Positions 3,639-17,148 of a stretch of DNA of 25,014 nt are shown here, piece after piece. The translations under genes and the position numbers were made by a program. Source of the stretch: a virus; IMG/VR virus record IMGVR_UViG_3300021068_000287, positions 1-25,014 of that record; one strand, given 5' to 3'. Numbering within the stretch: position 1 is the stretch's first letter; each line of letters opens with the position of its first letter. The notes under the pieces were generated by a model. That model made no database searches. It had not been told where the DNA came from and saw only the letters and a list, made by a program, of their open reading frames with translations.

Positions 3639-3761
3639 ATTATTACCTATTTAAAAATTTCAGTGCTATTCATTTTAAACACTATGTTAATATATTAACT
3701 ACCTGCTAATGTTATTATATATGATAGTAAAAATATAACATAAAATAAATAGCACCACCTA

Positions 3762-4124: not shown

Positions 4125-5637
4125 ATTCTATAACCTTATTCCGTAGTCGTTCTTGTCTTAACGCATCGTCATAATGCAATGGTATACACGTAGCTAATAA
4201 CAAAATACCTGCATCTGTAATTAACTCAACATCTAAATCATTATCCTTTAAACAATTAATAAAAATATCTTGTACAGTTTCATTATGTGGAACATTTGAA
4301 ACTAAAGCATTATAACCATGTATTAAATCATGACTTAACTTAGCAAAATCATAAATATCACAACCATGATTACCAGAATATGAACCATATTTACCACGAG
4401 GGTCAATTAATACCATTTTATCTATATACGGGTTATATAATACATTGCCAAAATGCATATCACCATGTAAACCATCTATTGGCTTAGTTGACAAATGCAC
4501 CTTAATAGCTAACTCATTTAACCATTCATTAATCTCTTCAGGTAAACCAGCTACAAACAATCGTTCATATGTTTTACTTATCCACATACTATGAGAACAC
4601 GCATCAAAACTCTTTATAAATTCAATATCTTCACATGGACTATTAAAATACTTTAACTTAATTTTAAGCAACTTATCTATAATATATTCCCATGTACTAT
4701 CTGATAAATGGTCATATAACATCATATCAGACAATAACGTACCAGCAACATACGACATTGATAAAGAATATTCACTATTATATATTTGTGGTACAAACAT
4801 TTTCTGAGTATCTGATAAAGAACTATACCATGACTTTTCATTAGCAATAGTTTCAATACCATGCTCATCATGATAATCAGGCGTCTTAATTATAATACCT
4901 AAATCATTATCATACTTAATATTATTAAATGCTCTAGACTTTAACTTTAACAACTCAGCACAAGTCTTATAATATGTTCTTAAATCACCAATATCATACC
5001 AAGCATTAGTCTTAATGTTTTTATATTCTGTTTCAGTTTTATATGAATATACCTTTAATGCACTTGATATTTCTACTATATTATTCTCTGGCATATAAGT
5101 TGTTTCAAAAGCGTATTTTGCAGAATTAAAACTACTAAATGAATATAAACCAACTAACGCACTAGCATCTTCAACTTTAAATGCTGGCTTATTATAAAAA
5201 TCATTACCATCCCACATACACCAAGCAGATTGTTCAGTAACTTCTTTTGTTAACAAAAAATCTGTACCTAATGGCAAATCATCTTCTAAAATAATTGCAT
5301 CACCTAACCATACTACAACTGAATCATTCTCACTTTCAGGTAATACTTTGAAACCTTGTGCAATTGCATCAAGTGGTCCATTTAATGATTTTTGCTTAAC
5401 ACATTTAATATTTGGATGTTTAACTGCACAATACTCTCGTATATCATCAAACTTTCCATCAACTATAACAATTTCACCTAACTCGTATTTTTTATTATGA
5501 CATATACTTTTAATTGACTCAACAATATAATCTAAACATGGTTTACCATTTACTCTCACCATAATCTTAGATGTATTAGAAGATAATGGTCTTAATCGTG
5601 TCGCTGCTCCTGCAGCAGGTATAACAAAATGTATCAT
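4096..5637 (-). CDS. nucleotidyltransferase-kinase fusion protein
   Basis: This 513-residue protein joins two enzymes. Residues 1 to about 230 form a sugar-1-phosphate or LicC-type nucleotidyltransferase: PAAGAATRLRP (7-17) is the nucleotide-binding loop, followed by Lys24 and a VWLGDAI metal-site strand near 110. The C-terminal part, about 270-513, is an aminoglycoside/choline-kinase-like fold with the catalytic loop HGDMHFGN (391-398) and the metal-binding IDPRG (411-415). Such pairs can phosphorylate a small alcohol or sugar and activate it as an NDP or CDP derivative. It overlaps a HAD phosphatase gene and follows gp42, so I infer a route to an activated group, perhaps for hydroxymethylcytosine or for a surface glycan. 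The fold calls are good; the substrate is unknown. A GTTC-class promoter lies directly upstream. Confidence 0.85.
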   Translation of the reverse strand: MIHFVIPAAGAATRLRPLSSNTSKIMVRVNGKPCLDYIVESIKSICHNKKYELGEIVIVDGKFDDIREYCAVKHPNIKCVKQKSLNGPLDAIAQGFKVLPESENDSVVVWLGDAIILEDDLPLGTDFLLTKEVTEQSAWCMWDGNDFYNKPAFKVEDASALVGLYSFSSFNSAKYAFETTYMPENNIVEISSALKVYSYKTETEYKNIKTNAWYDIGDLRTYYKTCAELLKLKSRAFNNIKYDNDLGIIIKTPDYHDEHGIETIANEKSWYSSLSDTQKMFVPQIYNSEYSLSMSYVAGTLLSDMMLYDHLSDSTWEYIIDKLLKIKLKYFNSPCEDIEFIKSFDACSHSMWISKTYERLFVAGLPEEINEWLNELAIKVHLSTKPIDGLHGDMHFGNVLYNPYIDKMVLIDPRGKYGSYSGNHGCDIYDFAKLSHDLIHGYNALVSNVPHNETVQDIFINCLKDNDLDVELITDAGILLLATCIPLHYDDALRQERLRNKVIEYVTNKKYSV

Positions 5638-5670
5638 AAATTCCCTTCCTATTTAAATATCAATATGGCT

Positions 5671-5699
5671 ATTATACCATATTGATATTCATTATTGAA
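5671..5699 (-). promoter_or_regulatory. GTTC-class promoter
   Basis: On the minus strand AAAGTG is followed by TTCAAT (5699-5694), a 17-bp spacer and TATAAT (5676-5671) with a TG extended -10. It drives the nucleotidyltransferase-kinase and HAD pair. The -35 box departs from TTGACA in the same way as those in front of gp43 and gp45. Confidence 0.65.
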
Positions 5700-5704
5700 C
5701 ACTT

Positions 5705-6466
5705 TTAATTATTATACTTATTATCATAATCAGCTTTACTAATAAAAGTTTCGCCAGTCTTGATATAATGATCAACTAAATAAAAATTCTTTTCATAAAT
5801 ATGAAGATTCTGTGCTTGCCAATAAATCTTACCTGGTTTAAGCGGAAACAAATCTCTAATATAAACTAAATAATTGTTACAATGACCAGTTAACTTTTCA
5901 AGTACGTGTTTTTGCCATGCCAAATCATTACGATAACCTGCCCATATATCATTACTTCTCATCTGTACTACAGCGTGTAACTCACCACCACGAGCATAAT
6001 ATGTAACAGCATTAGTACAAATAAAATCTGACTTACCATCCTTATTATAATCATCCCAAATAGAAGGTCGTGTATATACCATTGTTGCTCGACGTGTATC
6101 ATGATGACCATGGGTTAACTCTTCAAGCACATTTTCAAATTGATTATTAAACTCTTTACTATAAATCAAATTACCATAATTTGAATTAACATCACCATTA
6201 TCATCAGCAGTACTTACCCATGATGCCGGCGGTTCACGTTCTTCACCATAAATATCTTTAATATTAGTACTTTGACTGTTATACCACTCTATCTCTTTTT
6301 CAATATATTCTTCATTCAACTTACCAAAAATACAATCCTCATCAGCAATAAATGATGCACCTAATAACTCAATTGTTAAGTCTCCATTTTTATCATCACT
6401 AAACTCACGCTTCTTAAACTTATCTGCAATATAATCTCTAATATCCTGTACTTTCATTACGTCCAT
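5705..6466 (-). CDS. 42: dCMP hydroxymethylase (T4 gp42 homologue)
   Basis: This 253-residue protein resembles T4 gp42 (246 residues) almost end to end. Shared stretches include ELLGASFIADE, YTRPSIWDDYNKDG, SDFICTNAV, MRSND and FYLVDHYIKTGETFISK. It converts dCMP to 5-hydroxymethyl-dCMP with methylene-tetrahydrofolate, as part of the phage nucleotide synthesis complex. The catalytic cysteine is Cys150 (T4 Cys148). Asp181 in YRND corresponds to T4 Asp179, the residue that selects dCMP over the dUMP used by thymidylate synthases, so this is a hydroxymethylase rather than a thymidylate synthase. The start overlaps the previous stop as TAATG, with a GAGGAG ribosome binding site; a second ATG follows at codon 4. 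It is the third gene of an operon with two nucleotide pyrophosphohydrolases. Confidence 0.96.
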   Translation of the reverse strand: MDVMKVQDIRDYIADKFKKREFSDDKNGDLTIELLGASFIADEDCIFGKLNEEYIEKEIEWYNSQSTNIKDIYGEEREPPASWVSTADDNGDVNSNYGNLIYSKEFNNQFENVLEELTHGHHDTRRATMVYTRPSIWDDYNKDGKSDFICTNAVTYYARGGELHAVVQMRSNDIWAGYRNDLAWQKHVLEKLTGHCNNYLVYIRDLFPLKPGKIYWQAQNLHIYEKNFYLVDHYIKTGETFISKADYDNKYNN

Positions 6467-6783
6467 TACTCGTTCTCCTCACTTATATAACGATCATCCA
6501 TATTTCTTGCTTTATTATACTGTTCCATTAATATAATCAATTGTGTAGCAGCATGATGCAAATGTGGAAAACCCGATTCTTGATCTAAATCCTCTCCATC
6601 CCAAAATGATAACAAATGACGCTGTAATGATGAATATGTTCTGCTCCACTCAGTACTATCTAAATCATCTCGCCAATTATTAGCACCATACTTCTCTGCT
6701 CCAAAACCTAATACCATTGCAATTTCTTTAATTGCATCAACCGGAACTAAATGAATTGGCGCTTTACCTTCATCATACTTCAT
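6466..6783 (-). CDS. dATP/dGTP diphosphohydrolase-like protein
   Basis: This 105-residue protein matches the N-terminal domain family of phage dATP/dGTP diphosphohydrolases (DUF5664-like). The signatures are KYDEGKAPIHLVP (residues 2-14), FGAEKYGANNW (27-37), a conserved RHL (55-57), DQESGFPHLHHA (67-78) and a terminal helix LIILMEQY. The His and acidic residues would form the metal site of an all-alpha pyrophosphohydrolase. It lies three bases after the MazG-like gene and overlaps gp42 by one base, so all three share one transcript. A role in shaping the dNTP pool alongside hydroxymethylcytosine synthesis is likely. Family membership is clear; which dNTP it hydrolyses is inferred from the family name. 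Confidence 0.82.
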   Translation of the reverse strand: MKYDEGKAPIHLVPVDAIKEIAMVLGFGAEKYGANNWRDDLDSTEWSRTYSSLQRHLLSFWDGEDLDQESGFPHLHHAATQLIILMEQYNKARNMDDRYISEENE

Positions 6784-6786
6784 ATA

Positions 6787-7203
6787 TTATTCTACCAACT
6801 TGAGAACATCTTCAACTGTACCTAAATTATCCTTATGACATGGTGCAGTCCAACCTTTTGGCTTAATCAAGTCAGGCAACCCTAATGAATTAGGTCGAGT
6901 CGCTTTTGTACCAACTTCTTTACTCATATTTGCAGCATCAACTCGGTCCCACGCCAACTCAGCATCTACACCAAAAATATCCAATGTACCTAATGCAATA
7001 ACTACCAAATCAATCAATGCATCTACTAACTCATCAGCATCCTTTTCAGCCAATGCCTCATGTGCTTCAGTAAACTCTTCAGTCAACATACCAAAACGAA
7101 ACTTCATTAACTCACCTAATTTCTCAGGATTAGCTTTTACCCACTCATGAACTTGATACTTATCATGCATTGCTTTAATATCTGCGAACATCTCTTTACT
7201 CAT
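6787..7203 (-). CDS. MazG-like nucleotide pyrophosphohydrolase
   Basis: This 138-residue all-alpha NTP pyrophosphatase has the metal-binding helices of the MazG/dUTPase superfamily: TEEFTEAHEA (41-50, Glu42, Glu43, Glu46) and ADELVDALIDLVV (56-68, Glu58, Asp61, Asp65). The C-terminal tail with TRPNSLGLPDLIKPKGW resembles phage phosphoribosyl-ATP pyrophosphohydrolase-like proteins. It is first in the operon with the DUF5664-like gene and gp42. T4 makes hydroxymethylcytosine DNA only because gp56 destroys dCTP and dUTP. No gp56 homologue is visible here, so this protein could supply dCTPase activity, which is inference. The ribosome binding site AGGAAGG is strong. Confidence 0.85.
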   Translation of the reverse strand: MSKEMFADIKAMHDKYQVHEWVKANPEKLGELMKFRFGMLTEEFTEAHEALAEKDADELVDALIDLVVIALGTLDIFGVDAELAWDRVDAANMSKEVGTKATRPNSLGLPDLIKPKGWTAPCHKDNLGTVEDVLKLVE

Positions 7204-7234
7204 TTTATACCTTCCTATCCATTTCTAAAATTAT

Positions 7235-7262
7235 ATTATATAACACTTTTTACTATAGTGAA
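7235..7262 (-). promoter_or_regulatory. GTTC-class promoter
   Basis: The minus strand shows AAAGTG, TTCACT (7262-7257), a 16-bp spacer and TATAAT (7240-7235). It lies 32 bases upstream of the MazG-like gene and would transcribe the three-gene nucleotide operon ending with gp42. Confidence 0.55.
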
Positions 7263-7266
7263 CACT

Positions 7267-7563
7267 TTATGCATTTAAAGTGAACGAAATAGCTAAACGA
7301 TCACGTATTGTATTATAACTCATACAACACTCAACTGATTCACCTTCACCTATCTGAATAACTTTATCAAAGTCCTGATAAGACTCACATACAAAGTTAC
7401 GATTTAACCCATACTTCTGATAATACTCATTACACTTATCTCTTGATACATTACGTACCCTAATACTAATATACTTATCATTCTTATTAATAACAGAAAA
7501 ACCACCCAAACTACGTAACTCTGTTATCATTGGCTCAACAAACTTAATCTCTGAATATTTCAT
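7267..7563 (-). CDS. hypothetical protein, 98 aa
   Basis: I do not recognise this product. It is a mixed alpha/beta, fairly basic small protein with no membrane segment and no motif I can name. An AAAGGAA ribosome binding site lies at good distance from the ATG, and a GTTC-class promoter sits 28 bases further up, so it is expressed separately from the nuclease gene before it. The stop codon comes just before the promoter of the nucleotide operon. The context of replication and nucleotide genes suggests a middle-type accessory function, which is only inference. Confidence 0.7.
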   Translation of the reverse strand: MKYSEIKFVEPMITELRSLGGFSVINKNDKYISIRVRNVSRDKCNEYYQKYGLNRNFVCESYQDFDKVIQIGEGESVECCMSYNTIRDRLAISFTLNA

Positions 7564-7590
7564 ACCGTTCCTTTTGTGATTTATGTGTAT

Positions 7591-7619
7591 ATTATATCAA
7601 ATTCTATAACAAAGTTGAA
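7591..7619 (-). promoter_or_regulatory. GTTC-class promoter
   Basis: The minus strand reads AAAAGTG, TTCAAC (7619-7614), a 17-bp spacer and TATAAT (7596-7591) with TGA in front. It sits directly upstream of the 98-residue gene and abuts the end of the nuclease gene. Confidence 0.6.
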
Positions 7620-7627
7620 CACTTTTT

Positions 7628-8323
7628 TTAATTATTTTCTTTATTATAATGACCTATCTCAGTAAGCTGCTTAATTAACCGCTTAACTAACTGGTCAGTC
7701 TTATAACTAAATACTTGAACTATAGGCTTATTTACGTTCTTATGCGACCCACACGCTATTACGCACTGCTCTATAAGTAACCCTGTCTCTTTATATATGA
7801 TTAATGCATATACCGCAACTTGACGTCTATACCCAGTTATATACATTTCTTCCTTCTCTTTGCTAGAAAACTTAAAATCAATGATAGATAACACACCCTT
7901 ATAGTAACCTATGCAATCCACAATTCCATGCATTCTAAGGGCCTTACTGTACAATATCTTCTCTATATATAATGGCTCAACATCAACTAAAAACTTTGAA
8001 TGATACGACTCTTGTAACTTTAAATACTTACCAACTTCATCATCTGAATGCGCTGGTGGCTTATCTTGATAATAATTCTCAATGTTTTCATGTAACATCG
8101 TACCACGATTAAAACACTCTTCCATATATCTATCACAAGCGCCCTCACCATGCTTCTTGTCATAGTTCTCTTTCCACCGTCGTAATCCTTCACGATCTTC
8201 TTCAGTTTCAAACAAACCATTAATACCGCCAGCTGATAAAGAACCATTTTTCTTAAACTCTGTAAATGTATCCCTTCCTGGAATATATTCAGGTAATGAC
8301 TTTAACGCTTCTACATTTTTCAC
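7628..8323 (-). CDS. PD-(D/E)XK exonuclease, RecB/Cas4/MGME1-like
   Basis: This 231-residue protein is a RecB-family nuclease. The fold motifs in order are GTMLHENIE (residues 74-82, His78), an acidic helix and strand near Glu117-Glu121, HGIVDCIGY (132-140, Asp136), IIDFKFSS (147-154, Asp149 and Lys151) and the motif RRQVAVYAL with Gln168 and Tyr172. This is the complete H-D-DxK-QxxxY set of Cas4, AddB C-terminal and MGME1-type single-strand exonucleases. The start is a GTG overlapping the previous stop as GTGA; no in-frame ATG lies nearby. A role in recombination, repair or host DNA breakdown is likely. I see no cysteines arranged for an iron-sulfur cluster, which argues against a true Cas4. 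Confidence 0.85.
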   Translation of the reverse strand: MKNVEALKSLPEYIPGRDTFTEFKKNGSLSAGGINGLFETEEDREGLRRWKENYDKKHGEGACDRYMEECFNRGTMLHENIENYYQDKPPAHSDDEVGKYLKLQESYHSKFLVDVEPLYIEKILYSKALRMHGIVDCIGYYKGVLSIIDFKFSSKEKEEMYITGYRRQVAVYALIIYKETGLLIEQCVIACGSHKNVNKPIVQVFSYKTDQLVKRLIKQLTEIGHYNKENN

Positions 8324-8565
8324 AAGACAGCCTTCTTAAATTTCCTTCGAGTTTTACTAAATGAACGAATCGGATTTGTATACCTAATATAAGTATCATC
8401 CTTAGCACTATAAAACGCAATTAAACTCCCAGACCGATCTAATGCATATACTGAATCTTCACTAACTTTAAAATTACCATCATAAGCCGTCTGTACTTCA
8501 GTTAACAAACTTAACTTTTCAGTACTAGCCATTTTAATAAACTCTTGCTTAGACATCATAATCAT
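8320..8565 (-). CDS. hypothetical protein, 81 aa
   Basis: This is an unrecognised small basic protein, with a middle beta-rich part (FKVSEDSVYALDRSG) and an Arg/Lys-rich end (KTRRKFKK). The start is ambiguous: ATG at 8565 or, three codons later, at 8556. A GGAAAA ribosome binding site lies about 13 bases from the first. The stop overlaps the nuclease GTG start by four bases (GTGA), so the two genes are translationally coupled. The basic tail would suit a nucleic-acid-binding partner of the nuclease, but that is a guess. Confidence 0.65.
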   Translation of the reverse strand: MIMMSKQEFIKMASTEKLSLLTEVQTAYDGNFKVSEDSVYALDRSGSLIAFYSAKDDTYIRYTNPIRSFSKTRRKFKKAVL

Positions 8566-8585
8566 AATATAATATATTTTCCTTT

Positions 8586-8620
8586 TTTAAAAATAAAGTA
8601 TACAGAAAAATTCTGTATAC
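8586..8620 (-). terminator. putative intrinsic terminator
   Basis: The inverted repeat GTATACAG / CTGTATAC (8598-8605 and 8613-8620) has a 7-base loop and is followed on the minus strand by a T-rich run. The stem is AT-rich, so termination may be partial. It separates the 77-residue gene from the nuclease operon. Confidence 0.6.
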
Positions 8621-8639
8621 CTCTTACTTATAAACTTTT

Positions 8640-8873
8640 TTATGGTCGCTTTAAACATTCTAATACATTACGTACTGATTTATCATCAGGGTTAAAATTA
8701 ATCAACTGCTCTTCTACATATCTAATCGCTTTATCAGTCCTAACCGCTGTTAATGCTAAACCTAAATAATCAGTATACGCACCACCATGATCTAACGCAA
8801 TCTGAATCTCACGCTTGTTTTGCTGTAACTCACTGACGCAACTTTTTAATATTTTTGTATGTAAATCTTCCAT
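8640..8873 (-). CDS. hypothetical protein, 77 aa
   Basis: I cannot assign a function. It is a mostly helical small protein (long amphipathic stretches such as KSCVSELQQNKREIQIAL) without a membrane span. The ATG follows an AAAGGAA ribosome binding site. It has its own promoter with a TTTACA -35 box and a perfect -10, and a likely terminator follows, so it forms a single-gene transcription unit between the polymerase operon and the nuclease operon. Confidence 0.7.
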   Translation of the reverse strand: MEDLHTKILKSCVSELQQNKREIQIALDHGGAYTDYLGLALTAVRTDKAIRYVEEQLINFNPDDKSVRNVLECLKRP

Positions 8874-8905
8874 ATAATATTCCTTTGTTTTTAAATTATA
8901 TAGCT

Positions 8906-8934
8906 ATTATATCAAATAATAGCCTTCTTGTAAA
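8906..8934 (-). promoter_or_regulatory. sigma70 promoter
   Basis: The minus strand reads TTTACA (8934-8929), a 17-bp spacer and TATAAT (8911-8906) with a TGA extended -10: one mismatch from consensus. It drives the 77-residue gene. Confidence 0.75.
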
Positions 8935-8945
8935 ATTAACATTTG

Positions 8946-9203
8946 TTAATAATTATACTTACTTAACTCTTCTGTAACATATTCTAACTCACTCTCAATA
9001 TCACTCCTAATCTTCTCCAGATTAGTATACTTATCAATGTTATCACTGCTATTCAATATACACAACTGAGAAACCAACTCATCTTGTAATTGTATTAATT
9101 TATTTATATTTTCTTTAGCTTGCTCATCAAACTCATCATTAACATACATACCTATAACTTGTCCTATAACTGACTTATACCCATCACGATCTAAACTTAT
9201 CAT
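8946..9203 (-). CDS. hypothetical protein, 85 aa, coupled to gp43
   Basis: This unrecognised acidic, largely helical protein is likely to form a coiled coil in its second half (DELVSQLCILN to ELEYVTEEL). The start overlaps the polymerase stop by four bases (ATGA), so it is translated together with the truncated polymerase. It has none of the polymerase fingers, motif B (K-x3-NS-x-YG) or motif C (DTD) residues, so it is not the missing half of gp43. The tight coupling raises the possibility that it binds or completes the split enzyme, which is speculative. Confidence 0.7.
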   Translation of the reverse strand: MISLDRDGYKSVIGQVIGMYVNDEFDEQAKENINKLIQLQDELVSQLCILNSSDNIDKYTNLEKIRSDIESELEYVTEELSKYNY

Positions 9204-11056
9204 AGTTCACCACGTAACCTTAACTCTTTCTCAATTGCTTTAACATTGTGCTCATGGTCCATCATCTTTTTCTTATGAATCTTACGCTCCTTAAAGACTT
9301 TAGTTATCTCTTCAGGTATTACTCCTAATACATCTTTCTTATACGATGCTCCATTTGAACTTAATGAATAACTACTATTATCATATATCATATTACCACT
9401 TAATAACTCCTCTATACAATACATGATCTCACCATGCTCCTCATCTTCTAACTCACTTGAACAATTACTAAAATTAATATTAGGCTCTTGCTTTGTTACA
9501 AAAGTCTCGGGCGATATATTTACTTGTCTAATAATAGATGGATATAACGACTCCAAGTCAAACGATGCTATACGCTTTTTCAAACCCTTAATAGGCTTTT
9601 TAACATAACCACCAATATAACGCTGCTTACGAGCATTAGACCTACCCGGTAATACTACTTTATTCTGCTTAACTGAATTAAATATAATAGCATCCCACGT
9701 CTTAATCGGCGAAAAAACATTACTAAAATTAATCCTAGCATAATAAGCAAGCGATATAGACAAGTTAATAAAACCACGCTTAGCATCTAAACGATTAACT
9801 AACTCAACGTCTTTAACGTTATAATCAGTAACCATCTGAAATGATAACTGAATTGCTTTACTTGATACATAATCATATAACTGCTCACAACGATTACTAT
9901 CAGAAACTATTAAATCCTTAAACTTATCAATATTATTCTTAACATTTAATAAATCTTTTTCTGTACCAGCCATAAACGCTGTAACTTCTTCAGTTGGCTC
10001 AATTGACTTATATCCAACTTCAGATAATAAATGCTTCATATATGCATAATACTCATAAGCATGGGAATCATCATAAAGCTTATTCTGCTTTATCTCAGAT
10101 TTACCATAAACTTCCATGAAATTATGCCTAAAATGTATCTTGTTCTCATTTATCTCCGACTCACCAATAGCATCTAAACGATAACTAGGCTGTGGCGTAA
10201 AACTGAACTTCTTATATAATTGCAACCAATCTAATGATTCTATACCAAAAATATTAACATCATAATGATACTTGTTTTTAGAAATAAGCTCATCTTTTAA
10301 CTCATCAGTTTTTGCACTTGCTTTAATACCCATCGGCCATTCAATAACTTGCTTACGGGTAACTTTACCCCATGGCGACAAATTATCAGCAATCGGCTTA
10401 CTTAACACTTTACAATAACGATTATATAAATATGGTATATCAAAACCATCAGTATTATACCCAGTTACAATAACTGGACAATTCTCACGCCAAAAACGTA
10501 AATATCCAATCAATAATGACTTCTCATCAGTAAAAGTCAATATATCGACCTTTTCTAATAAATCATCATCCAATATAGATAAATCTCGACTCCACCGCTG
10601 TGACTTACCTAACATTACAAAAACTGTATATTTATCCAAAATGGAATCATAATGTGCTATTGACGTTATCTCATAAGCAGCCTGATTCGCACTAGGGAAC
10701 TTTGGAGCGGGTACTTCAATATCAAAATTAGCAACACGGATTGACTTAATATACTTACTTAAGTCAATTTCATCATTATACTTATCTGATATATACTGTA
10801 AACCAAAATCATCTTGACCTAACATACCTACCGCAGCATTTCTTGATGCCTTACCAGCTTCATTTATACTCGGAAATTTACACTTAACACAAGGAACTCC
10901 ATAAATGGTTTTATAATTTGATACTGCTGACTTATTTTCAACAAATAACGATGGCTGAAAATCTTCAACAATTCGCTTCTTCTCAACCAAATCATCATCT
11001 AAATACCTCTCATATATTTTACCACCACTATTAAGAACATTTAAATATAGTGACAT
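9200..11056 (-). CDS. 43: DNA polymerase gp43, N-terminal part (split)
   Basis: This is the N-terminal portion of a family B replicative polymerase closest to T4 gp43. Exonuclease motifs are complete: Exo I FDIE (Asp112, Glu114, the same numbering as T4), Exo II GYNTDGFD (Asp205) and Exo III YNVKD (Asp416). Polymerase motif A is FDLESLYPSIIRQVNISPET with Asp500. The protein stops at residue 618, soon after VIPEEITKVFKERKIHKKKM, where the T4 fingers domain begins; T4 gp43 continues to 898. Motifs B and C are missing here and are not encoded anywhere in this window. Between Exo II and Exo III there are about 100 residues more than in T4. The ribosome binding site is AAAGGAG. It is the expected gene after regA in the T4 order but is separated from it by 7 kb. 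I read it as a genuine split gene whose second half lies elsewhere. Confidence 0.93.
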   Translation of the reverse strand: MSLYLNVLNSGGKIYERYLDDDLVEKKRIVEDFQPSLFVENKSAVSNYKTIYGVPCVKCKFPSINEAGKASRNAAVGMLGQDDFGLQYISDKYNDEIDLSKYIKSIRVANFDIEVPAPKFPSANQAAYEITSIAHYDSILDKYTVFVMLGKSQRWSRDLSILDDDLLEKVDILTFTDEKSLLIGYLRFWRENCPVIVTGYNTDGFDIPYLYNRYCKVLSKPIADNLSPWGKVTRKQVIEWPMGIKASAKTDELKDELISKNKYHYDVNIFGIESLDWLQLYKKFSFTPQPSYRLDAIGESEINENKIHFRHNFMEVYGKSEIKQNKLYDDSHAYEYYAYMKHLLSEVGYKSIEPTEEVTAFMAGTEKDLLNVKNNIDKFKDLIVSDSNRCEQLYDYVSSKAIQLSFQMVTDYNVKDVELVNRLDAKRGFINLSISLAYYARINFSNVFSPIKTWDAIIFNSVKQNKVVLPGRSNARKQRYIGGYVKKPIKGLKKRIASFDLESLYPSIIRQVNISPETFVTKQEPNINFSNCSSELEDEEHGEIMYCIEELLSGNMIYDNSSYSLSSNGASYKKDVLGVIPEEITKVFKERKIHKKKMMDHEHNVKAIEKELRLRGEL

Positions 11057-11086
11057 TTTTTACTCCTTTACCATCAATATAGGTCT

Positions 11087-11115
11087 ATTATATACCATAA
11101 CAAACCTATTTTGAA
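11087..11115 (-). promoter_or_regulatory. GTTC-class promoter of gp43
   Basis: The minus strand reads AAAAGTG, TTCAAA (11115-11110), a 17-bp spacer and TATAAT (11092-11087). It lies 31 bases upstream of the polymerase start and directly after the stop of the preceding 101-residue gene. Confidence 0.65.
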
Positions 11116-11121
11116 CACTTT

Positions 11122-11427
11122 TTATAAATTGCTTAATTTACCTTTATTCTCATAATGATACTCACTAGCTTTAATTAACGCATCTAATGTATGCGCACTT
11201 GGATAAGTACTATACTCTTTAAAAGCATCATCTAATAATTTCTGAGGGTCAATAACAATCAAATCCTCTGCGGCAATTGCTATTTTAACAGTATAATAAT
11301 TTTCCAATGTGACAGAAAATGTAACTTCACACTCAGGATGACCATAACAATCAAAAACTGGACCTACGTTGCACTTTTTGTACTTAGTAATCCCAATAAG
11401 TTCTAAGGTAGCGGCTACATCAATCAT
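11122..11427 (-). CDS. hypothetical protein, 101 aa
   Basis: This unrecognised small alpha/beta protein has a central beta region (CEVTFSVTLENYYTVKIAIA) followed by helices. Its start overlaps the stop of the 68-residue gene as ATGA, so the pair is co-translated from the consensus promoter at 11664-11692. No catalytic motif or membrane span is visible. It is the last gene of the accessory block before the polymerase. Confidence 0.7.
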   Translation of the reverse strand: MIDVAATLELIGITKYKKCNVGPVFDCYGHPECEVTFSVTLENYYTVKIAIAAEDLIVIDPQKLLDDAFKEYSTYPSAHTLDALIKASEYHYENKGKLSNL

Positions 11428-11630
11428 AATAACTTCTCTATTTTATCTGATGGAACAATACCAACAAATTCCATACTTTTATATGATAATATACATTCAT
11501 ATTTTACACCACGCCACATTTCATATGCTTTTGCTACTAATTCAGCATATTCTTCACTTTCATATTCACCTAAATATAGGTTAGTATTAGCTGATGAAAC
11601 ACCGTATCTTAAACCATATACTTTAACCAT
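11424..11630 (-). CDS. hypothetical protein, 68 aa
   Basis: This is an unrecognised small protein rich in Tyr and Glu (for example EYESEEYAELVAKAYEMW), probably a compact alpha/beta fold. A GGAGAGG ribosome binding site precedes the ATG, and an exact-consensus sigma70 promoter lies 34 bases upstream. It overlaps the following gene by four bases. I infer an early accessory gene of unknown role. Confidence 0.7.
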   Translation of the reverse strand: MVKVYGLRYGVSSANTNLYLGEYESEEYAELVAKAYEMWRGVKYECILSYKSMEFVGIVPSDKIEKLL

Positions 11631-11663
11631 AATTACCTCTCCATTTAATCAATTTATGCGTAT

Positions 11664-11692
11664 ATTATACCACAGAATAGGTATATTGTCAA
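11664..11692 (-). promoter_or_regulatory. consensus sigma70 early promoter
   Basis: TTGACA (11692-11687), a 17-bp spacer and TATAAT (11669-11664), both exact, with a TG extended -10. It drives the 68- and 101-residue pair. Confidence 0.88.
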
Positions 11693-11717
11693 CACTTTTT
11701 CAACATTTTTTAATATT

Positions 11718-11794
11718 ACCTCTGGTGTTTTCTGGTAACCTTTCAATAGGTATACCGTCAAACCAAGATTCCATACACCAGAGGTGTTGTCTCG
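11718..11794 (-). repeat. dispersed CACCAGAGG inverted-repeat element, copy 2
   Basis: CCTCTGGTG (11719-11727) pairs with CACCAGAGG (11776-11784). Between them lies the family core with CAATAGGTATACCGTC and AACCAAGATTCCAT. It sits between the end of the 105-residue gene and the next promoter. Confidence 0.8.
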
Positions 11795-11804
11795 GTGATA
11801 ACGC

Positions 11805-12122
11805 TTAATGCCATACGTCATCATCATTAATGGCTTCAACTACAGGCATTGCACGTAACACTTCTCTTGCTTTTGTTACTATACCTTTAAAACGCTCATT
11901 GTCACTTTCAGGAATAGCTGAATAACCTCTACCCCATGCTTGCCACGATACTGAACTGCCATAACCATCGTCACTACTCAACCAATTGTCTATATTGTGA
12001 ACAATAGCATCAGACCACTCTTCAAACATCTCTACAATGTTATCAGGCAAATCATCCAAACTATAAAGAACTTCAAACTTTAACCAATCACCCATGGTCG
12101 CGTTACCGTAATAATCACCCAT
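11805..12122 (-). CDS. hypothetical acidic protein, 105 aa
   Basis: This unrecognised protein is very acidic, with clusters such as DDLPDNIVEMFEEWSD and a terminal NDDDVWH. Acidic early phage proteins are often DNA mimics or host-enzyme inhibitors, but nothing here proves that. An AAAGGAG ribosome binding site precedes the ATG and a near-consensus promoter (TTTACA / TATAAT) lies 32 bases upstream. The stop codon falls just before repeat copy 2. Confidence 0.7.
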   Translation of the reverse strand: MGDYYGNATMGDWLKFEVLYSLDDLPDNIVEMFEEWSDAIVHNIDNWLSSDDGYGSSVSWQAWGRGYSAIPESDNERFKGIVTKAREVLRAMPVVEAINDDDVWH

Positions 12123-12153
12123 ATCTCACACTCCTTTATCAATTTATAAGACT

Positions 12154-12182
12154 ATTATATCAAGCCATAACCTTATTGTAAA
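12154..12182 (-). promoter_or_regulatory. sigma70 promoter
   Basis: TTTACA (12182-12177), a 17-bp spacer and TATAAT (12159-12154) with a TGA extended -10. One mismatch from consensus. It drives the 105-residue gene. The AT-rich block AAATGTTAACA lies just upstream of the -35 box, as at the other early promoters. Confidence 0.78.
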
Positions 12183-12226
12183 CACCTTTTGTGTTAACAT
12201 TTGGTAATATAACCGCTATTGACTTC

Positions 12227-12526
12227 TTATCCAATAGCACGCATATACATCCACGTCATACCCTCATTATCCATATACTTATATTTACAACTAATATCCT
12301 TATTCATCCGCTTGAATGACTTAACCGATGAACATAAGAAGTCTGGCATATTAGAAAACTCATACTCAGTTTCAGTATCAAAATCCAAAACCAACGTAGG
12401 ATATTCACCGTGATCAGTCACCTGAATAGCATTACCATATGCACCAATAACATAATCACCTTTAACGGGTACATGGAAACCACGAATCTTAAAACCTAAT
12501 GGCGACTCAATCTGAAGTGGGTTCAT
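12227..12526 (-). CDS. hypothetical protein, 99 aa
   Basis: This unrecognised, probably beta-rich protein contains FKIRGFHVPVKGDYVIGAYG and YPTLVLDFDTETEYEF, which suggest a small barrel-like fold. I chose the ATG at 12526, which follows a good AAAGGAA ribosome binding site. An upstream in-frame ATG at 12556 lies within the conserved 5' leader shared by unrelated neighbours (TTAAACGGAAAGG), so it is untranslated leader. An exact-consensus promoter precedes it. Function unknown. Confidence 0.7.
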   Translation of the reverse strand: MNPLQIESPLGFKIRGFHVPVKGDYVIGAYGNAIQVTDHGEYPTLVLDFDTETEYEFSNMPDFLCSSVKSFKRMNKDISCKYKYMDNEGMTWMYMRAIG

Positions 12527-12562
12527 AATATTTCCTTTATCCTTTCCGTTTAACATGGGTAT

Positions 12563-12591
12563 ATTATACCAAATTATATCGCCACTGTCAA
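12563..12591 (-). promoter_or_regulatory. consensus sigma70 early promoter
   Basis: TTGACA (12591-12586), a 17-bp spacer and TATAAT (12568-12563), both exact. The conserved leader TTAAACGGAAAGG follows. It drives the 99-residue gene. Confidence 0.88.
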
Positions 12592-12628
12592 CGGTTTTAT
12601 ATTAACATTATGTAATATTTACTGAATG

Positions 12629-12891
12629 TATCTCTGGTAATCAACCTATAGGTATACCCGCAAACCAAGATTCCATTCACCAGAGGGGTGCTCTCAGTAT
12701 ACCCGATATTTAATACCCCTCTGGTGATTTCTGACACAGAACCTAATGGATTACCGTTAAACCAAGATTCCATTCACCAGAGGGGCTCTCTCAGTATACC
12801 CGATATTTAATACCCCTCTGGTGATTTCTGGTGCAGAACCTAATGGATTACCGTTAAACCAAGATTCCATTCACCAGAGGGGCTCTCTCAG
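12629..12891 (-). repeat. array of three inverted-repeat elements, 97-bp period
   Basis: Three units lie at 12629-12697, 12716-12794 and 12813-12891. The last two differ at only a few positions and are offset by exactly 97 bp. In the third unit CCCCTCTGGTGA pairs perfectly with TCACCAGAGGGG around a 46-50-base interior, and TTCTG/CAGAA can form a small inner hairpin on the minus strand. No gene lies between 12592 and 12952: the stretch holds this array and a terminator. Confidence 0.88.
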
Positions 12892-12910
12892 TATTACCAT
12901 ACCCCAGGCA

Positions 12911-12934
12911 TAAAAAAACCACCTGTAGGTGGTT
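12911..12934 (-). terminator. intrinsic terminator
   Basis: The minus strand reads AACCACC, loop TACA, GGTGGTT, then seven T. It follows the 124-residue gene (stop at 12953) by about 20 bases. Confidence 0.88.
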
Positions 12935-12952
12935 GTTTCTTAACACTTTATT

Positions 12953-13327
12953 TTAATCAATATCGACACAACGGGTGCGCTTATATAATAAACCGATTAC
13001 AGCATCATCCTTCTTGAAGTTTGGCATTGAACCGCTTATATAATAACCATCATGAGTTTCACGTTTAGCACCTTTAGGCAATCTCCAAGCAATGTATACA
13101 TATTCGCTTATTTTATATTTTTTACCCCAATGGTTTACTTTGACTTCAGTGTTATTCTTGTTGCGTTCCTTACATTCAGCACGCATTTTATTAACCAAAA
13201 GATTGTCAAAATAGGACTTAGGATCAATATAACACTTGAAGTGTTCTGGGCGGGTTTTACCCATTTTCGCCATACGTGAATCCAAACGAGCAGCGGCTTC
13301 CATATAAGTTTCAGTACGTGTAGTCAT
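12953..13327 (-). CDS. hypothetical basic protein, 124 aa
   Basis: This unrecognised basic protein is rich in Lys and Arg (KMRAECKERNKNNTEVK, RLPKGAKRET), with a likely helical N-terminus and a beta-rich remainder. The charge would suit nucleic-acid binding. It has its own exact-consensus promoter, a GAGAGAAA ribosome binding site and its own terminator, so it is a single-gene unit. Its codons are less AT-rich than those of the core replication genes, as in other genes of this block. Confidence 0.7.
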   Translation of the reverse strand: MTTRTETYMEAAARLDSRMAKMGKTRPEHFKCYIDPKSYFDNLLVNKMRAECKERNKNNTEVKVNHWGKKYKISEYVYIAWRLPKGAKRETHDGYYISGSMPNFKKDDAVIGLLYKRTRCVDID

Positions 13328-13365
13328 AATATTTCTCTCTCAATCAAATTTTTTAATATGGGTAT

Positions 13366-13394
13366 ATTATACCAGGTTTGGATACCGTTGTCAA
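13366..13394 (-). promoter_or_regulatory. consensus sigma70 early promoter
   Basis: TTGACA (13394-13389), a 17-bp spacer and TATAAT (13371-13366), both exact. The -35 box begins only three bases after the stop codon of the next gene upstream. It drives the 124-residue gene. Confidence 0.88.
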
Positions 13395-13397
13395 CGG

Positions 13398-13529
13398 TTA
13401 TTTGAATTCTTTTTCCATTGAATCCAACTCAAATTCGAGATCATTTGCGCTTTCCAACAAACATTCAATGTCATTGTTAAGGGCGTTTAGTTCGGCTTCC
13501 ATTGCAGCGATAATTTCTAAATCAGTCAT
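13398..13529 (-). CDS. small coiled-coil protein, tandem copy 1, 43 aa
   Basis: This tiny protein begins MTDLEIIAAMEAEL and ends SMEKEFK, and is acidic with heptad-like leucines, so a short coiled coil is likely. It is one of three tandem paralogues with a 201-bp period and is the most diverged: the middle reads NNDIECLLESANDLEFEL. An AAAGGAA ribosome binding site and an exact-consensus promoter precede it. I do not recognise the family. Conservation of ends and reading frame across copies supports it as a real gene. Confidence 0.75.
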   Translation of the reverse strand: MTDLEIIAAMEAELNALNNDIECLLESANDLEFELDSMEKEFK

Positions 13530-13566
13530 AATAATTCCTTTGTGCCTTTCCGTTCAAGATGTATAT

Positions 13567-13595
13567 ATTATACCAGGTTTGGATACCGTTGTCAA
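13567..13595 (-). promoter_or_regulatory. consensus sigma70 early promoter
   Basis: TTGACA (13595-13590), a 17-bp spacer and TATAAT (13572-13567), both exact. It drives coiled-coil copy 1. Confidence 0.88.
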
Positions 13596-13598
13596 CGG

Positions 13599-13730
13599 TT
13601 ATTTGAATTCTTTTTCCATTGATTTCAGTTCAAGATCAAGAGCATTAACATCGTCTTCTAAAGTATCGACTTCAGTGTTAAGGGCTTTCAACTCGGCTTC
13701 CATTGCAGCAATAATTTCTAAATCAGTCAT
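13599..13730 (-). CDS. small coiled-coil protein, tandem copy 2, 43 aa
   Basis: This protein is identical to copy 3 as translated, with a middle of TEVDTLEDDVNALDLELK that is strongly heptad-like, so a coiled coil or helical oligomer is expected. It differs from copy 3 at several synonymous codons (for example GAG TTG against GAA CTA for Glu-Leu), which suggests selection on the protein rather than a very recent duplication. It has its own exact-consensus promoter and an AAAGGAA ribosome binding site. Function unknown. Confidence 0.78.
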   Translation of the reverse strand: MTDLEIIAAMEAELKALNTEVDTLEDDVNALDLELKSMEKEFK

Positions 13731-13767
13731 AATAATTCCTTTGTGCCTTTCCGTTCAAGATGTGTAT

Positions 13768-13796
13768 ATTATACCAGGTTTACATACCGTTGTCAA
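13768..13796 (-). promoter_or_regulatory. consensus sigma70 early promoter
   Basis: TTGACA (13796-13791), a 17-bp spacer and TATAAT (13773-13768), both exact. It drives coiled-coil copy 2. Confidence 0.88.
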
Positions 13797-13799
13797 CGG

Positions 13800-13931
13800 T
13801 TATTTGAATTCTTTTTCCATTGATTTCAGTTCAAGATCAAGAGCATTAACATCGTCTTCTAAAGTATCAACTTCAGTGTTAAGGGCTTTTAGTTCGGCTT
13901 CCATTGCAGCAATAATTTCTAAATCAGTCAT
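13800..13931 (-). CDS. small coiled-coil protein, tandem copy 3, 43 aa
   Basis: This protein has the same amino-acid sequence as copy 2 and a heptad-like acidic helix. It is first of the three in transcription order. Unlike the others it lacks its own good promoter: the matching region (about 13950-13978) retains leader-like sequence, but the -10 has decayed to GCAATA and the -35 to CTGTTT. It is therefore probably read through from the 88-residue gene just upstream. An AAAGGAA ribosome binding site is present. Function unknown. Confidence 0.78.
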   Translation of the reverse strand: MTDLEIIAAMEAELKALNTEVDTLEDDVNALDLELKSMEKEFK

Positions 13932-13979
13932 AATAATTCCTTTGCGCATTTCCATTTAATATGTGTATTGCTAAACAGT

Positions 13980-14246
13980 TTAAAAATAACCAACACAAAT
14001 CATGATGGTTTCACTGTCATGTGGTTCAGCATACCAACCCTTGCTGTGGAGGTATGTGTTCAATTTATTGTCGTCCAAAGTACCATCGGCATACGGGTAA
14101 TAATCGGTTTTTTCGGTACAGATATCATCATTGATCCAAATGTTTTCAGACTCACGGCCGTAAAACTTAGTGGCATCGACCGCTGAAAGACCGAATCTTT
14201 TGTTAAGGTTTTTGATCAAGGTTTCGCGTTTCATTGGCTTCTTCAT
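13980..14246 (-). CDS. hypothetical protein, 88 aa
   Basis: This unrecognised protein has a basic N-terminal helix (MKKPMKRETLIKNLNKRF) and an acidic, aromatic remainder with many Asp and Tyr. It ends IMICVGYF. No membrane span or catalytic motif is seen. An exact-consensus promoter with the conserved leader lies upstream. Transcription may continue into coiled-coil copy 3, whose promoter is degenerate. Confidence 0.72.
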   Translation of the reverse strand: MKKPMKRETLIKNLNKRFGLSAVDATKFYGRESENIWINDDICTEKTDYYPYADGTLDDNKLNTYLHSKGWYAEPHDSETIMICVGYF

Positions 14247-14283
14247 AATTTTTCCTTTGTACCTTTCCGTTCAAGATGTATAT

Positions 14284-14312
14284 ATTATACCAGGTTTGGA
14301 TACCGTTGTCAA
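14284..14312 (-). promoter_or_regulatory. consensus sigma70 early promoter
   Basis: TTGACA (14312-14307), a 17-bp spacer and TATAAT (14289-14284), both exact. The spacer is identical to those at 13366 and 13567. It drives the 88-residue gene. Confidence 0.88.
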
Positions 14313-14332
14313 CGGTTTTTTGAAGTTTTTTA

Positions 14333-14569
14333 TTAACTTTCTGTAATATTTAACTCAGGATAATAATAATCGAATGTATCAATTTCCATACCGTAATCAT
14401 CGCCTAACAAAAATGCCTTGATTTTTTTAGGGTCACCTGTAATGGTGGCTTCCATTCGACCGTCATCCACGATGGTAATACCGTGTTCACGAGACAACGC
14501 TTTATCCAAACCGTTTTCCTCAGAAGCCCAATCAACGATAACAGTGGTGGTTTTGATTTCATTCGTCAT
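14333..14569 (-). CDS. hypothetical acidic protein, 78 aa
   Basis: This unrecognised acidic protein is probably a small alpha/beta fold: strand TTTVIVDWA, a helix, then strands HGITIVDDG and MEATITGD, followed by an acidic aromatic tail DTFDYYYPEL. It has its own exact-consensus promoter, the conserved leader and an AAAGGAA ribosome binding site. Function unknown. Confidence 0.72.
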   Translation of the reverse strand: MTNEIKTTTVIVDWASEENGLDKALSREHGITIVDDGRMEATITGDPKKIKAFLLGDDYGMEIDTFDYYYPELNITES

Positions 14570-14606
14570 AATAATTCCTTTGTGCCTTTCCGTTCAAGAT
14601 GTGTAT

Positions 14607-14635
14607 ATTATATTAAGTTTGGATACCGATGTCAA
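14607..14635 (-). promoter_or_regulatory. consensus sigma70 early promoter
   Basis: TTGACA (14635-14630), a 17-bp spacer and TATAAT (14612-14607), both exact. It drives the 78-residue gene. Confidence 0.87.
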
Positions 14636-14655
14636 CGATTATTTTAAGTTTTTTA

Positions 14656-14814
14656 TTAACTTTCGTTAATGTTTTCACCCCATATTGCTTTCATCATAGC
14701 ATCATGTAATTCTTCCTTGGTGGCACGTTTGGTAGGACCCTTTTTTGCAGTACGAGCATTGGCGTTTTTGATGATTTCAGCGAAGATTGCATTGGTTTCT
14801 GATTGAGTTTTCAT
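14656..14814 (-). CDS. hypothetical small basic protein, 52 aa
   Basis: The protein begins MKTQSETNAIFAEIIKNA and carries a basic middle (ARTAKKGPTKRATKEEL), then a helix ending AIWGENINES. I do not recognise it. The layout matches its neighbours: an AAAGGAAAA ribosome binding site, the conserved leader TTGAACGGAAAGG and a near-consensus promoter at 14853-14881. A basic linker in such a small early protein would suit binding to nucleic acid or a host enzyme, which is only a guess. Confidence 0.72.
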   Translation of the reverse strand: MKTQSETNAIFAEIIKNANARTAKKGPTKRATKEELHDAMMKAIWGENINES

Positions 14815-14852
14815 AATGTTTTCCTTTGTGCCTTTCCGTTCAAGATGTGTAT

Positions 14853-14881
14853 ATTATATAACGGATTGGTACCAAGGTCAA
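14853..14881 (-). promoter_or_regulatory. near-consensus sigma70 early promoter
   Basis: TTGACC (14881-14876), a 17-bp spacer and TATAAT (14858-14853). One mismatch. It drives the 52-residue gene. Confidence 0.82.
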
Positions 14882-14924
14882 CGGTTTATTAATGTTTTTT
14901 TATTAACATTTTGTAATATTCAGA

Positions 14925-15191
14925 GAGTGTTTTCTAGTGCTTGATCAATAGGTATACCCGCAAACCGAGATTCCATTCACCAGAGGGGCTCTCTCAGTAT
15001 ATCCGATATTTAATACCCCTCTGATGATTTCTGGTGCAGAACCTAATGGATTACCGTTAAACCAGGATTCCATTCACCAGAGGGGCTCTCTCAGTATATC
15101 CGATATTTAATACCCATCTGATGATTTCTGGTGCAGAACCTAATGGATTACCGTTAAACCAGGATTCCATTTACCAGAGGGGCTCTCTCAG
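14925..15191 (-). repeat. second array of three inverted-repeat elements, 97-bp period
   Basis: Units lie at 14925-14997, 15016-15094 and 15113-15191, and the last two are again exactly 97 bp apart. Some stem bases differ from the first array (CCCCTCTGATGA, CCCATCTGATGA), so the outer stem is weakened in places. The last unit runs into the 3' end of the 104-residue gene. The 14882-15170 stretch holds nothing else that I can see. Confidence 0.86.
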
Positions 15192-15485
15192 ACCATTATG
15201 ATCACCAAAATGATCACCCTCGTGGTCACCTTCATGTACGCCAAAATGGTCACCATAATGATTACCCCAATGACCACCATCATGAAGACCTTCGTGACAT
15301 CCATAATGGTCACCAATTAAGTCACCGACATGGTCACCATAATGATTACCATGATGGTTACCTAAAATATCACCTAAAATATCACACCCAATATGGGTAA
15401 TATATACCTCACCAGTTTGCTCATCGAAACCAAAGGTCATATTTTCTTTAATAAATTTTTGGATTGCTTTTTCTTTAGTAGTCAT
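15171..15485 (-). CDS. Gly-x-His-x tetrapeptide-repeat protein A, 104 aa
   Basis: After a 33-residue head (MTTKEKAIQKFIKENM, then FGFDEQTGEVYITHIG) the protein is about 15 repeats of four residues, mostly Gly-Asp/Asn-His-x, as in GNHYGDHVGDLIGDHY. A histidine every fourth residue and a glycine every fourth residue suggest a regular solenoid or a metal-binding surface. I do not know a named family. A full paralogue lies at 16754-17065. Here the last residues LREPLW are encoded by the CTGAGAGAGCCCCTCTGG of the repeat element, so the original C-terminus seems to have been replaced. The start overlaps the previous stop as TAATG, so it is the last gene of the 16453-15171 operon. Confidence 0.8.
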   Translation of the reverse strand: MTTKEKAIQKFIKENMTFGFDEQTGEVYITHIGCDILGDILGNHHGNHYGDHVGDLIGDHYGCHEGLHDGGHWGNHYGDHFGVHEGDHEGDHFGDHNGLREPLW

Positions 15486-15709
15486 TATGAGTCCCTATCG
15501 ACTAGTAATTCGTTATTAAACCGCTTAATCATATCATAATCATCGCTGAATACTGATATCCAAATATGAGAACAACCTTCTAACATAAAAGTATCAACAA
15601 TCTGTTCACGCATATCTTCAGTATCTAATTTAGCCAAACGTTCTTTAGCGTTATTAGCCAAATCCCAAGATTCATCAAGAACATAATTATCCGTATTAAT
15701 ATTGTTCAT
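15485..15709 (-). CDS. hypothetical protein, 74 aa
   Basis: This unrecognised acidic protein has a helical N-terminal half (WDLANNAKERLAKLDTED) and a C-terminal alpha/beta part (HIWISVFSDDYDMIKRF). The ATG at 15709 is chosen because GGAGA lies six bases upstream; an ATG three bases earlier and a TTG at 15730 are also open. It overlaps the end of the parS-bearing gene by 14 bases and touches the following gene as TAATG, so the three are translationally coupled. Confidence 0.68.
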   Translation of the reverse strand: MNNINTDNYVLDESWDLANNAKERLAKLDTEDMREQIVDTFMLEGCSHIWISVFSDDYDMIKRFNNELLVDRDS

Positions 15710-16187
15710 CATACGTCTCCACTGACTCAATTGATTGAACTGCTACAAAACTACATGGAATAATTTCACAAGCGTCTAAAATGCGGATTCTATCCAATAC
15801 GTTCTGTAAGCGCAAATCTTTATCATGATTTAAACCAAACTCAGCAACAGCACTTAACGTCATTTGCTTAGCAGCCCACCATCGCCACATACGACGACTA
15901 TTTTTTAGCTGAACAGTGCGACCTTCGTTATACTCCAAATACCCAAAATGAACACCTGAGTCACGACTACGAACAATTACAGGCTTTCCTACCAATGGAT
16001 CATCTAAAGGTATATTACCCATTGTTTCACGTGAAACATCTTCATTACCTATTGTTTCACGTGAAACACCTCTATTATCCATTGTTTCACGTGAAACACC
16101 TCTATTATCCATTGTTTCACGTGAAACAATAGGCTCCTCTGAAAGAAGCATTTCTAACAATTTGTACACTAAATCTTTTTTCATCAT
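15696..16187 (-). CDS. phage protein with parS-encoded repeats, 163 aa
   Basis: The protein has two parts. Residues about 20-57 are four repeats of VSRET, ten residues apart (VSRETMDNRG pattern); the underlying DNA is four perfect parS palindromes. Residues about 65-163 form a domain seen in other phage proteins (DUF6948-like, from memory): GKPVIVRSRDSGVHFGYLEY, RRMWRWWAAKQMTLSAVAEFG and LDACEIIPC. Its function is unknown. The repeat region looks like an insert or linker after a short N-terminal helix (MMKKDLVYKLLEMLLSEE), so the DNA rather than the peptide may be under selection. The ribosome binding site AAAGGGAAA precedes two adjacent ATG codons. Confidence 0.82.
   Translation of the reverse strand: MMKKDLVYKLLEMLLSEEPIVSRETMDNRGVSRETMDNRGVSRETIGNEDVSRETMGNIPLDDPLVGKPVIVRSRDSGVHFGYLEYNEGRTVQLKNSRRMWRWWAAKQMTLSAVAEFGLNHDKDLRLQNVLDRIRILDACEIIPCSFVAVQSIESVETYDEQY
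16023..16128. promoter_or_regulatory. cluster of four parS centromere sites
   Basis: The palindrome TGTTTCACGTGAAACA occurs perfectly at 16023-16038, 16053-16068, 16083-16098 and 16113-16128, at a constant 30-bp spacing. It fits the conserved bacterial chromosomal parS motif (B. subtilis form TGTTNCACGTGAAACA), the loading site of ParB CTPase clamps. The fourth copy extends to a 20-bp palindrome. All lie inside the 163-residue gene. No parA or parB gene is visible in this window. That the motif is parS rests on established knowledge; that ParB binds here is inference. Confidence 0.85.
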
Positions 16188-16195
16188 ATTTCCCT

Positions 16196-16453: not shown

Positions 16454-16466
16454 AATATTTTACTCT

Positions 16467-16667: not shown

Positions 16668-16700
16668 AATCACTTCATCCTTTCCGTTTAACATGGGTAT

Positions 16701-16729
16701 ATTATATCAAGGTATGGAACCATTGTCAA
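16701..16729 (-). promoter_or_regulatory. consensus sigma70 early promoter
   Basis: TTGACA (16729-16724), a 17-bp spacer and TATAAT (16706-16701), both exact. It is the only clear promoter for the five genes from 16667 down to 15171. Confidence 0.88.
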
Positions 16730-16753
16730 CACTTTTATATTAACAATAGGTAA

Positions 16754-17130: not shown

Positions 17131-17148
17131 CACCTTTTACAATATTTT

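What the first reader, a model, noticed from the sequence alone, without database searches (positions are those of the whole stretch)
9200..11056. Split DNA polymerase ending just after motif A
The gp43 homologue has all three exonuclease motifs and motif A but stops at residue 618, at the start of the fingers. Motifs B and C are absent from the whole window. The stop is followed by a coupled 85-residue gene rather than by the missing half. Split gp43 genes are known in some T4-like phages (Aeromonas phages 25 and 44RR), but there the halves are near each other.
Basis: partly seen in the sequence, partly recalled or inferred. Interest (0 to 1): 0.7.

Follow-up and report, generated by a model that had tools for sequence, protein, structure and literature searches.

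The report
Phage replicative polymerase split in two
A T4-like phage contig encodes only the front half of its replicative DNA polymerase, cut at the spot where two other phage groups also cut theirs, and the back half is missing from its usual place, so it probably lies elsewhere in the unsequenced genome.

Summary
Window 9200-11056(-) encodes a 618-residue gp43 N-terminal half with all exonuclease motifs and motif A. No motif B/C half exists in any frame of the 25 kb record. The stop overlaps the next start codon (ATGA).

One correction: the break is not just after motif A. It lies about 118 residues later, at the end of the first fingers helix (RB69 residue about 502-507).

That is exactly where gp43A ends in Aeromonas (44RR, 25) and Acinetobacter (Acj9, Lazarus) phages. 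There the two halves are separate cistrons, and a review reports that they co-purify and polymerise. A 43A tree places the window outside both groups and rejects one clade for all splits (AU p 0.0001), suggesting a third origin at the same site.

In the known phages 43B lies 0.05-4 kb downstream, before gene 42. Here that interval lacks it, and near-identical and 85%-identical contigs lack it further downstream too. 43A has its own phage-type promoter and intact catalytic residues.

Best reading: a working two-subunit gp43 whose C-half gene has left the local cluster. That gene was not found, so distance and function are inferred. This is a new variant of a known kind, of moderate interest.

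The parts
9200..11056 (-). gp43A: N-terminal half of a T4-type family B DNA polymerase (N-terminal domain, 3'-5' exonuclease, first part of palm with motif A, first fingers helix), 618 aa
11087..11121 (-). Own promoter of 43A: AAAGTGTTC box followed by TATAAT; one of 7 such boxes in the window
10712..10729 (-). Exo I motif (D112, E114)
   Evidence: invariant columns
10430..10462 (-). Exo II motif (N201, D206)
   Evidence: invariant columns
9875..10135 (-). About 85-residue insert between Exo II and Exo III (residues 308-394), low confidence in the model; environmental relative L125 has an insert at the same place
9806..9823 (-). Exo III motif (Y412, D416)
   Evidence: invariant columns
9533..9565 (-). 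Palm motif A SFDLESLYPSI (D500)
9212..9322 (-). First fingers helix (residues 579-615); the protein ends at its far end, where gp43A of Acj9, Lazarus and 44RR end
9200..9203 (-). ATGA overlap of the 43A stop with the start of the 85-aa gene
8946..9203 (-). 85-aa gene coupled to 43A; no match in Pfam, PHROGs or named phages
8906..8934 (-). Promoter-like site (TTTACA-17-TATAAT, TG before the second hexamer) right after the 85-aa gene; 43A plus the 85-aa gene look like one transcription unit
5705..6466 (-). Gene 42-like / thymidylate synthase-family protein; in Aeromonas and Acinetobacter relatives 43B lies between 43A and this gene, here it does not

Best explanation
This is the gp43A half of a two-subunit T4-type replicative polymerase. 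Shown here: the gene stops at the end of the first fingers helix, at the same place as gp43A of Aeromonas and Acinetobacter phages; it keeps every catalytic residue of its half; it has a promoter-like site of a type recurring in this phage; and its partner is not in the 25 kb. Inferred: a gp43B gene (second fingers helix, motifs B and C, thumb, clamp-binding tail; about 390 aa) lies elsewhere in the same genome, at least 9.2 kb downstream or 14 kb upstream. The two polypeptides fold together without a peptide link at the fingertip, rebuild the palm active site (D500 from gp43A, the DTD of motif C from gp43B) and work with the gp44/62 clamp loader and gp45 clamp encoded in the window. The split probably arose independently of the other two groups at a fingertip site that tolerates a break and attracts mobile elements, and the C-half was later moved out of the cluster.
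For: Break position equal to Acj9/Lazarus gp43A and 44RR. Stop overlaps the next start as in an ordinary operon. Intact catalytic residues. Confident N-terminal and exonuclease folds close to RB69 gp43, but pLDDT under 50 around the half palm (473-502), as expected if its strands need the other half. AAAGTGTTC-TATAAT promoter shared with gp45 and gp55. Same order as Acinetobacter relatives (55-47-46-45-44-62-regA-43A-...-42) without 43B. Independent contigs L204 (99.9%, window 32-5151) and L205 (85%) carry no 43B downstream either. AU test rejects all splits as one clade, p 0.0001; window with Acinetobacter p 0.0025; with Aeromonas p 0.02. A review reports that 43A and 43B of an Aeromonas phage co-purify and polymerise (PMC2988022). 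Distant halves exist as deposited in Acinetobacter phage DLP2.
Against: The partner gene was not found: four DNA-pattern scans of IMG/VR, one of genome contigs and the window itself give no 43B of this lineage. The window is one metagenome contig; no other contig confirms the 5.2-11 kb part. The window row has a long branch in the tree, so the third-origin claim is model-dependent. No interaction or activity is tested.
Confidence: 0.75

Rival explanations
1. Assembly artefact: the contig joins the 3' end of 43A to unrelated DNA or drops a segment that held 43B, so in the real genome 43B follows within a few kb as in other phages.
For: Single metagenome contig; no independent contig spans 5.2-11 kb. 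Close relatives keep 43B in that interval.
Against: Stop and next start overlap by ATGA, not a ragged junction. The same lineage-specific promoter boxes occur on both sides of the point (5704, 7267, 7624 and 11120, 21078, 21177, 24883). The break falls exactly at the known split site. No frame downstream resembles gp43.
Confidence: 0.12
2. Relic or repurposed half: the gp43B half has been lost, a different polymerase replicates the genome, and this protein survives as an exonuclease or clamp-binding factor.
For: No gp43B found anywhere. The window row sits on a long branch. A half palm alone cannot polymerise.
Against: The palm and fingers parts, useless without gp43B, are conserved, including motif A. 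The whole gp44/62/45 replisome and regA are present, and 43A shares the promoter type of gp45 and gp55.
Confidence: 0.08
3. The halves are joined after expression, by a trans-splicing group I intron or a split intein.
For: Intron and intein insertions are known in gp43B of Aeromonas phages (phage 25, Aes508, Aes516).
Against: No intein N-part: the protein ends where gp43A homology ends. No Rfam intron in the window or at the junction. The stop sits in a normal operon overlap.
Confidence: 0.03

Closest known systems
gp43A/gp43B of Aeromonas phages 44RR, 31 and 25 (Biquartavirus, Tulanevirus)
   Same: Two cistrons, break at the end of the first fingers helix; gp43A ends at the same place; T4-type replisome cluster
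   Different: 43B follows 43A by 49 nt (44RR) or about 0.85 kb with a GIY-YIG gene between (25); here it is at least 9.2 kb away or beyond the record. The exonuclease insert is absent there. Separate branch in the 43A tree.
gp43A/gp43B 'split DNA polymerase' of Acinetobacter phages (Acj9, Lazarus, ZZ1; Twarogvirinae)
   Same: Highest identity to the window (43-49%), same break, similar order of neighbouring genes, including the sugar nucleotidyltransferase and HAD genes downstream
   Different: 43B lies 2-4 kb downstream, before the gene 42-like gene; not here. AU test rejects a shared clade with the window (p 0.0025).
Acinetobacter phage vB_AbaM_DLP2 (OP946502)
   Same: Split gp43 with the halves far apart: 43A 48814-50322(-), 43B 18291-19463(+)
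   Different: As deposited, a block of about 31 kb is inverted between the halves compared with DLP1; possibly an assembly error. In the window the downstream genes keep their strand and only 43B is missing.
Intact T4/RB69 gp43
   Same: Fold and motifs of the first 500 residues
   Different: One chain of about 900 residues; no insert at 308-394

Membership tests
T4-type (Straboviridae-like) gp43 family B polymerase, N-terminal half | Exo I/II/III and motif A residues, homology over gp43 residues 1-500 | tested here: met
Two-cistron split gp43 (43A/43B) | 43A ends at the fingertip, at the known split site | tested here: met
Two-cistron split gp43 (43A/43B) | A separate 43B gene in the same genome, starting about 44 codons before N-R-K | tested here: inconclusive
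   not in the 25 kb record; the rest of the genome is not held; the start position is shared by the known cases
Two-cistron split gp43 (43A/43B) | 43B close downstream, between 43A and gene 42 (usual in known members, not strictly required) | tested here: not met
   interval 6467-9199 and everything down to position 1 lack it; L204 and L205 agree for 32-5151
Two-cistron split gp43 (43A/43B) | The two products form one active enzyme | not testable with these tools
   reported for an Aeromonas phage in PMC2988022
Split intein / trans-spliced polymerase | Intein N-part after the extein, or an intron in the RNA | tested here: not met
Group I intron-interrupted gp43 | Second exon in cis downstream | tested here: not met

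The most novel reading that the evidence does not exclude
A T4-like phage lineage whose replicative polymerase is made from two genes in unlinked parts of the genome, a split that arose a third time at the same fingertip residue. In the strongest form, the N-half has a partner other than a standard gp43B.
Probability: 0.3. Interest if true: 0.6.

Novelty: new variant of a known kind. Interest (0 to 1): 0.4.

Why it matters
Three lineages breaking an essential polymerase at the same loop suggests that the fingertip is a natural permissive cut site. It would let one ask whether a polymerase whose halves come from distant genes is assembled and regulated differently. It also extends a known curiosity of cultured Aeromonas and Acinetobacter phages to an uncultured lineage. 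The basic phenomenon, a two-cistron gp43 that works, is already known.

Tried and rejected
Frameshift at 9200: no gp43-like sequence in any frame. Intron or intein: nothing found. Finding the partner gene: pattern scans for split 43B starts and for two conserved 43B motifs in IMG/VR gave only known phages and unrelated or intact polymerases; genome contigs gave none. Close kin through 43A or gp46: none closer than about 46%; the sugar-nucleotidyltransferase gene found two kin contigs without 43A. The GIY-YIG gene at 1808-2305 shows no similarity to the GIY-YIG gene between 43A and 43B of phage 25. Several environmental polymerases interrupted near the same place (L133, L143-L151) have no clear own start and no Rfam intron; they were not counted as two-cistron splits. 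No megablast match of the window in named phages.

Full report
What is there. The window is a complete IMG/VR record of 25,014 bases, a fragment of a larger virus. Reading leftwards on the minus strand it carries the T4 replication cluster: gp55 sigma (24122-24745), gp47, gp46, gp45 clamp, gp44, gp62, RegA (18217-18582), then about 7 kb of small genes, then 43A (9200-11056), small genes, an exonuclease-like gene, MazG-like and dATP/dGTP pyrophosphohydrolase genes, a gene 42/thymidylate synthase-like gene, a sugar nucleotidyltransferase, an HAD-type gene, a C5 DNA methylase, a GIY-YIG gene and a helicase.

The polymerase half. The 618-residue product aligns to RB69 gp43 residues 4-502. Exo I, II, III and motif A residues are all present and invariant in a 30-row alignment. 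It has an insert of about 85 residues between Exo II and Exo III, and about 20 extra residues after motif A. An AlphaFold2 model (pLDDT 76.8) matches RB69 gp43 structures. The N-terminal and exonuclease domains are confident, the half palm around motif A is not, and residues 579-615 form one long helix, after which the protein ends. From my own knowledge of RB69 (fingers roughly 470-572), this is the tip of the fingers, not their start.

No second half in the record. Two gp43B proteins find nothing by tblastn. A gp43B profile finds nothing better than E 0.48 in six frames, while control loci score below 1e-100. Motifs B and C are absent in all frames. No Rfam intron is found. The stop overlaps the start of the next gene, as is usual in such operons.

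The same split is known. Aeromonas phages 44RR and 25 and Acinetobacter phages Acj9 and Lazarus have gp43A ending at the same place and a separate gp43B. The gaps between the halves are 49 nt in 44RR, about 0.85 kb in phage 25, and about 2-4 kb in Acinetobacter phages. The two-cistron cases compared share a 43B start 44 codons before N-R-K. A review reports that the halves from an Aeromonas phage co-purify and polymerise (PMC2988022); ZZ1 is described as split in PMC4177764. In the deposited genome of Acinetobacter phage DLP2 the halves are about 29 kb apart on opposite strands, because a block of about 31 kb is inverted relative to DLP1; whether this is real is untested.

What differs here. 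In the Aeromonas and Acinetobacter relatives 43B sits between 43A and gene 42. Here 43A and the gene 42-like gene are both present, on the same strand and in the same order, but 43B is not between them, nor anywhere down to position 1. Contig L204 (metagenome 3300021185, 99.9% identical) confirms window 32-5151, and L205 (3300021085, about 85-92%) covers most of 179-4599, neither with 43B. The stretch 5.2-11 kb rests on this contig alone.

Independent origin. In a 43A tree the window branches outside core Straboviridae, near L297 (a 245 kb virus, probably KVP40-like). Holding all seven split sequences in one clade is rejected (AU p 0.0001), and so are window plus Acinetobacter (0.0025) and window plus Aeromonas (0.02). 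The window has a long branch, and sequence alone cannot exclude transfer of a splitting element.

It looks like a live gene. Two promoter families recur in the window: eleven perfect TTGACA-N17-TATAAT sites on the minus strand in the 11.6-18.1 kb stretch plus one at 309-337, and AAAGTGTTC or AAGTGTTC followed by a TATAAT-like element at 24883 (before gp55), 21177 and 21078 (before gp45), 11120 (before 43A), 7624, 7267 and 5704. The second family resembles T4 middle promoters in architecture; that comparison is from memory. 43A therefore has its own promoter-like site of the type found before the clamp and the late sigma factor, and a further promoter-like site follows the 85-aa gene, so 43A need not share an operon with 43B. 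The same boxes on both sides of the 43A end also argue against a chimeric contig.

Search for the partner. Lone 43B genes turned up only in known Acinetobacter and Aeromonas phages and one Aeromonas-like environmental contig (L128/L210). The nearest environmental polymerase with a similar exonuclease insert, L125, is intact across the split site.

Conclusion. Shown: a gp43A-type half at the known split site, with no partner in its usual place. Inferred: a distant partner and non-covalent assembly. The missing partner gene is the main gap.

Noticed in passing
window 309-18097, minus strand: Twelve perfect TTGACA-N17-TATAAT promoters, many followed by a conserved leader ATCTTGAACGGAAAGG, before small genes: an early-promoter family of this phage.
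   Followed up: partly
window 24883, 21177, 21078, 11120, 7624, 7267, 5704 (minus strand): Second promoter family AAAGTGTTC, about 18 nt, TATAAT-like, before gp55, gp45, 43A and nucleotide-metabolism genes; looks like a middle-promoter class with its own activator box.
   Followed up: partly
window 15171-15485 and 16754-17092: Two proteins built of repeated G-[DN]-H-x units (12-nt DNA repeat), no Pfam match for the first.
   Followed up: no
window 15983-16128: 30-nt repeat holding the palindrome GTTTCACGTGAAAC, about four times, inside the coding region 15696-16187.
   Followed up: no
window 12536-12988 and 14836-15288: 97-nt tandem repeats present as two arrays about 2.1 kb apart.
   Followed up: no
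L335 (OP946502, Acinetobacter phage DLP2) 5292-6464 and 35815-37323: Inversion of about 31 kb puts 43A and 43B on opposite strands about 29 kb apart compared with DLP1; either real or an assembly error.
   Followed up: partly
L205 825-2069: The 85%-identical kin contig carries an extra 414-aa gene between the HAD-type gene and the DNA methylase that the window lacks.
   Followed up: no
L143-L151, L154, L133, L148: Environmental T4-type polymerases interrupted near the same fingertip or at N-S-x-Y-G by 0.2-1 kb without a clear start for the second part and without an Rfam intron in those scanned; perhaps undescribed introns.
   Followed up: partly
L296: Polymerase fragment with what looks like an intein C-terminal end right at motif C.
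   Followed up: no
L125: Polymerase with an insert at the same place as the window's, and Y-I-D-T-D-S instead of Y-G-D-T-D-S at motif C.
   Followed up: partly
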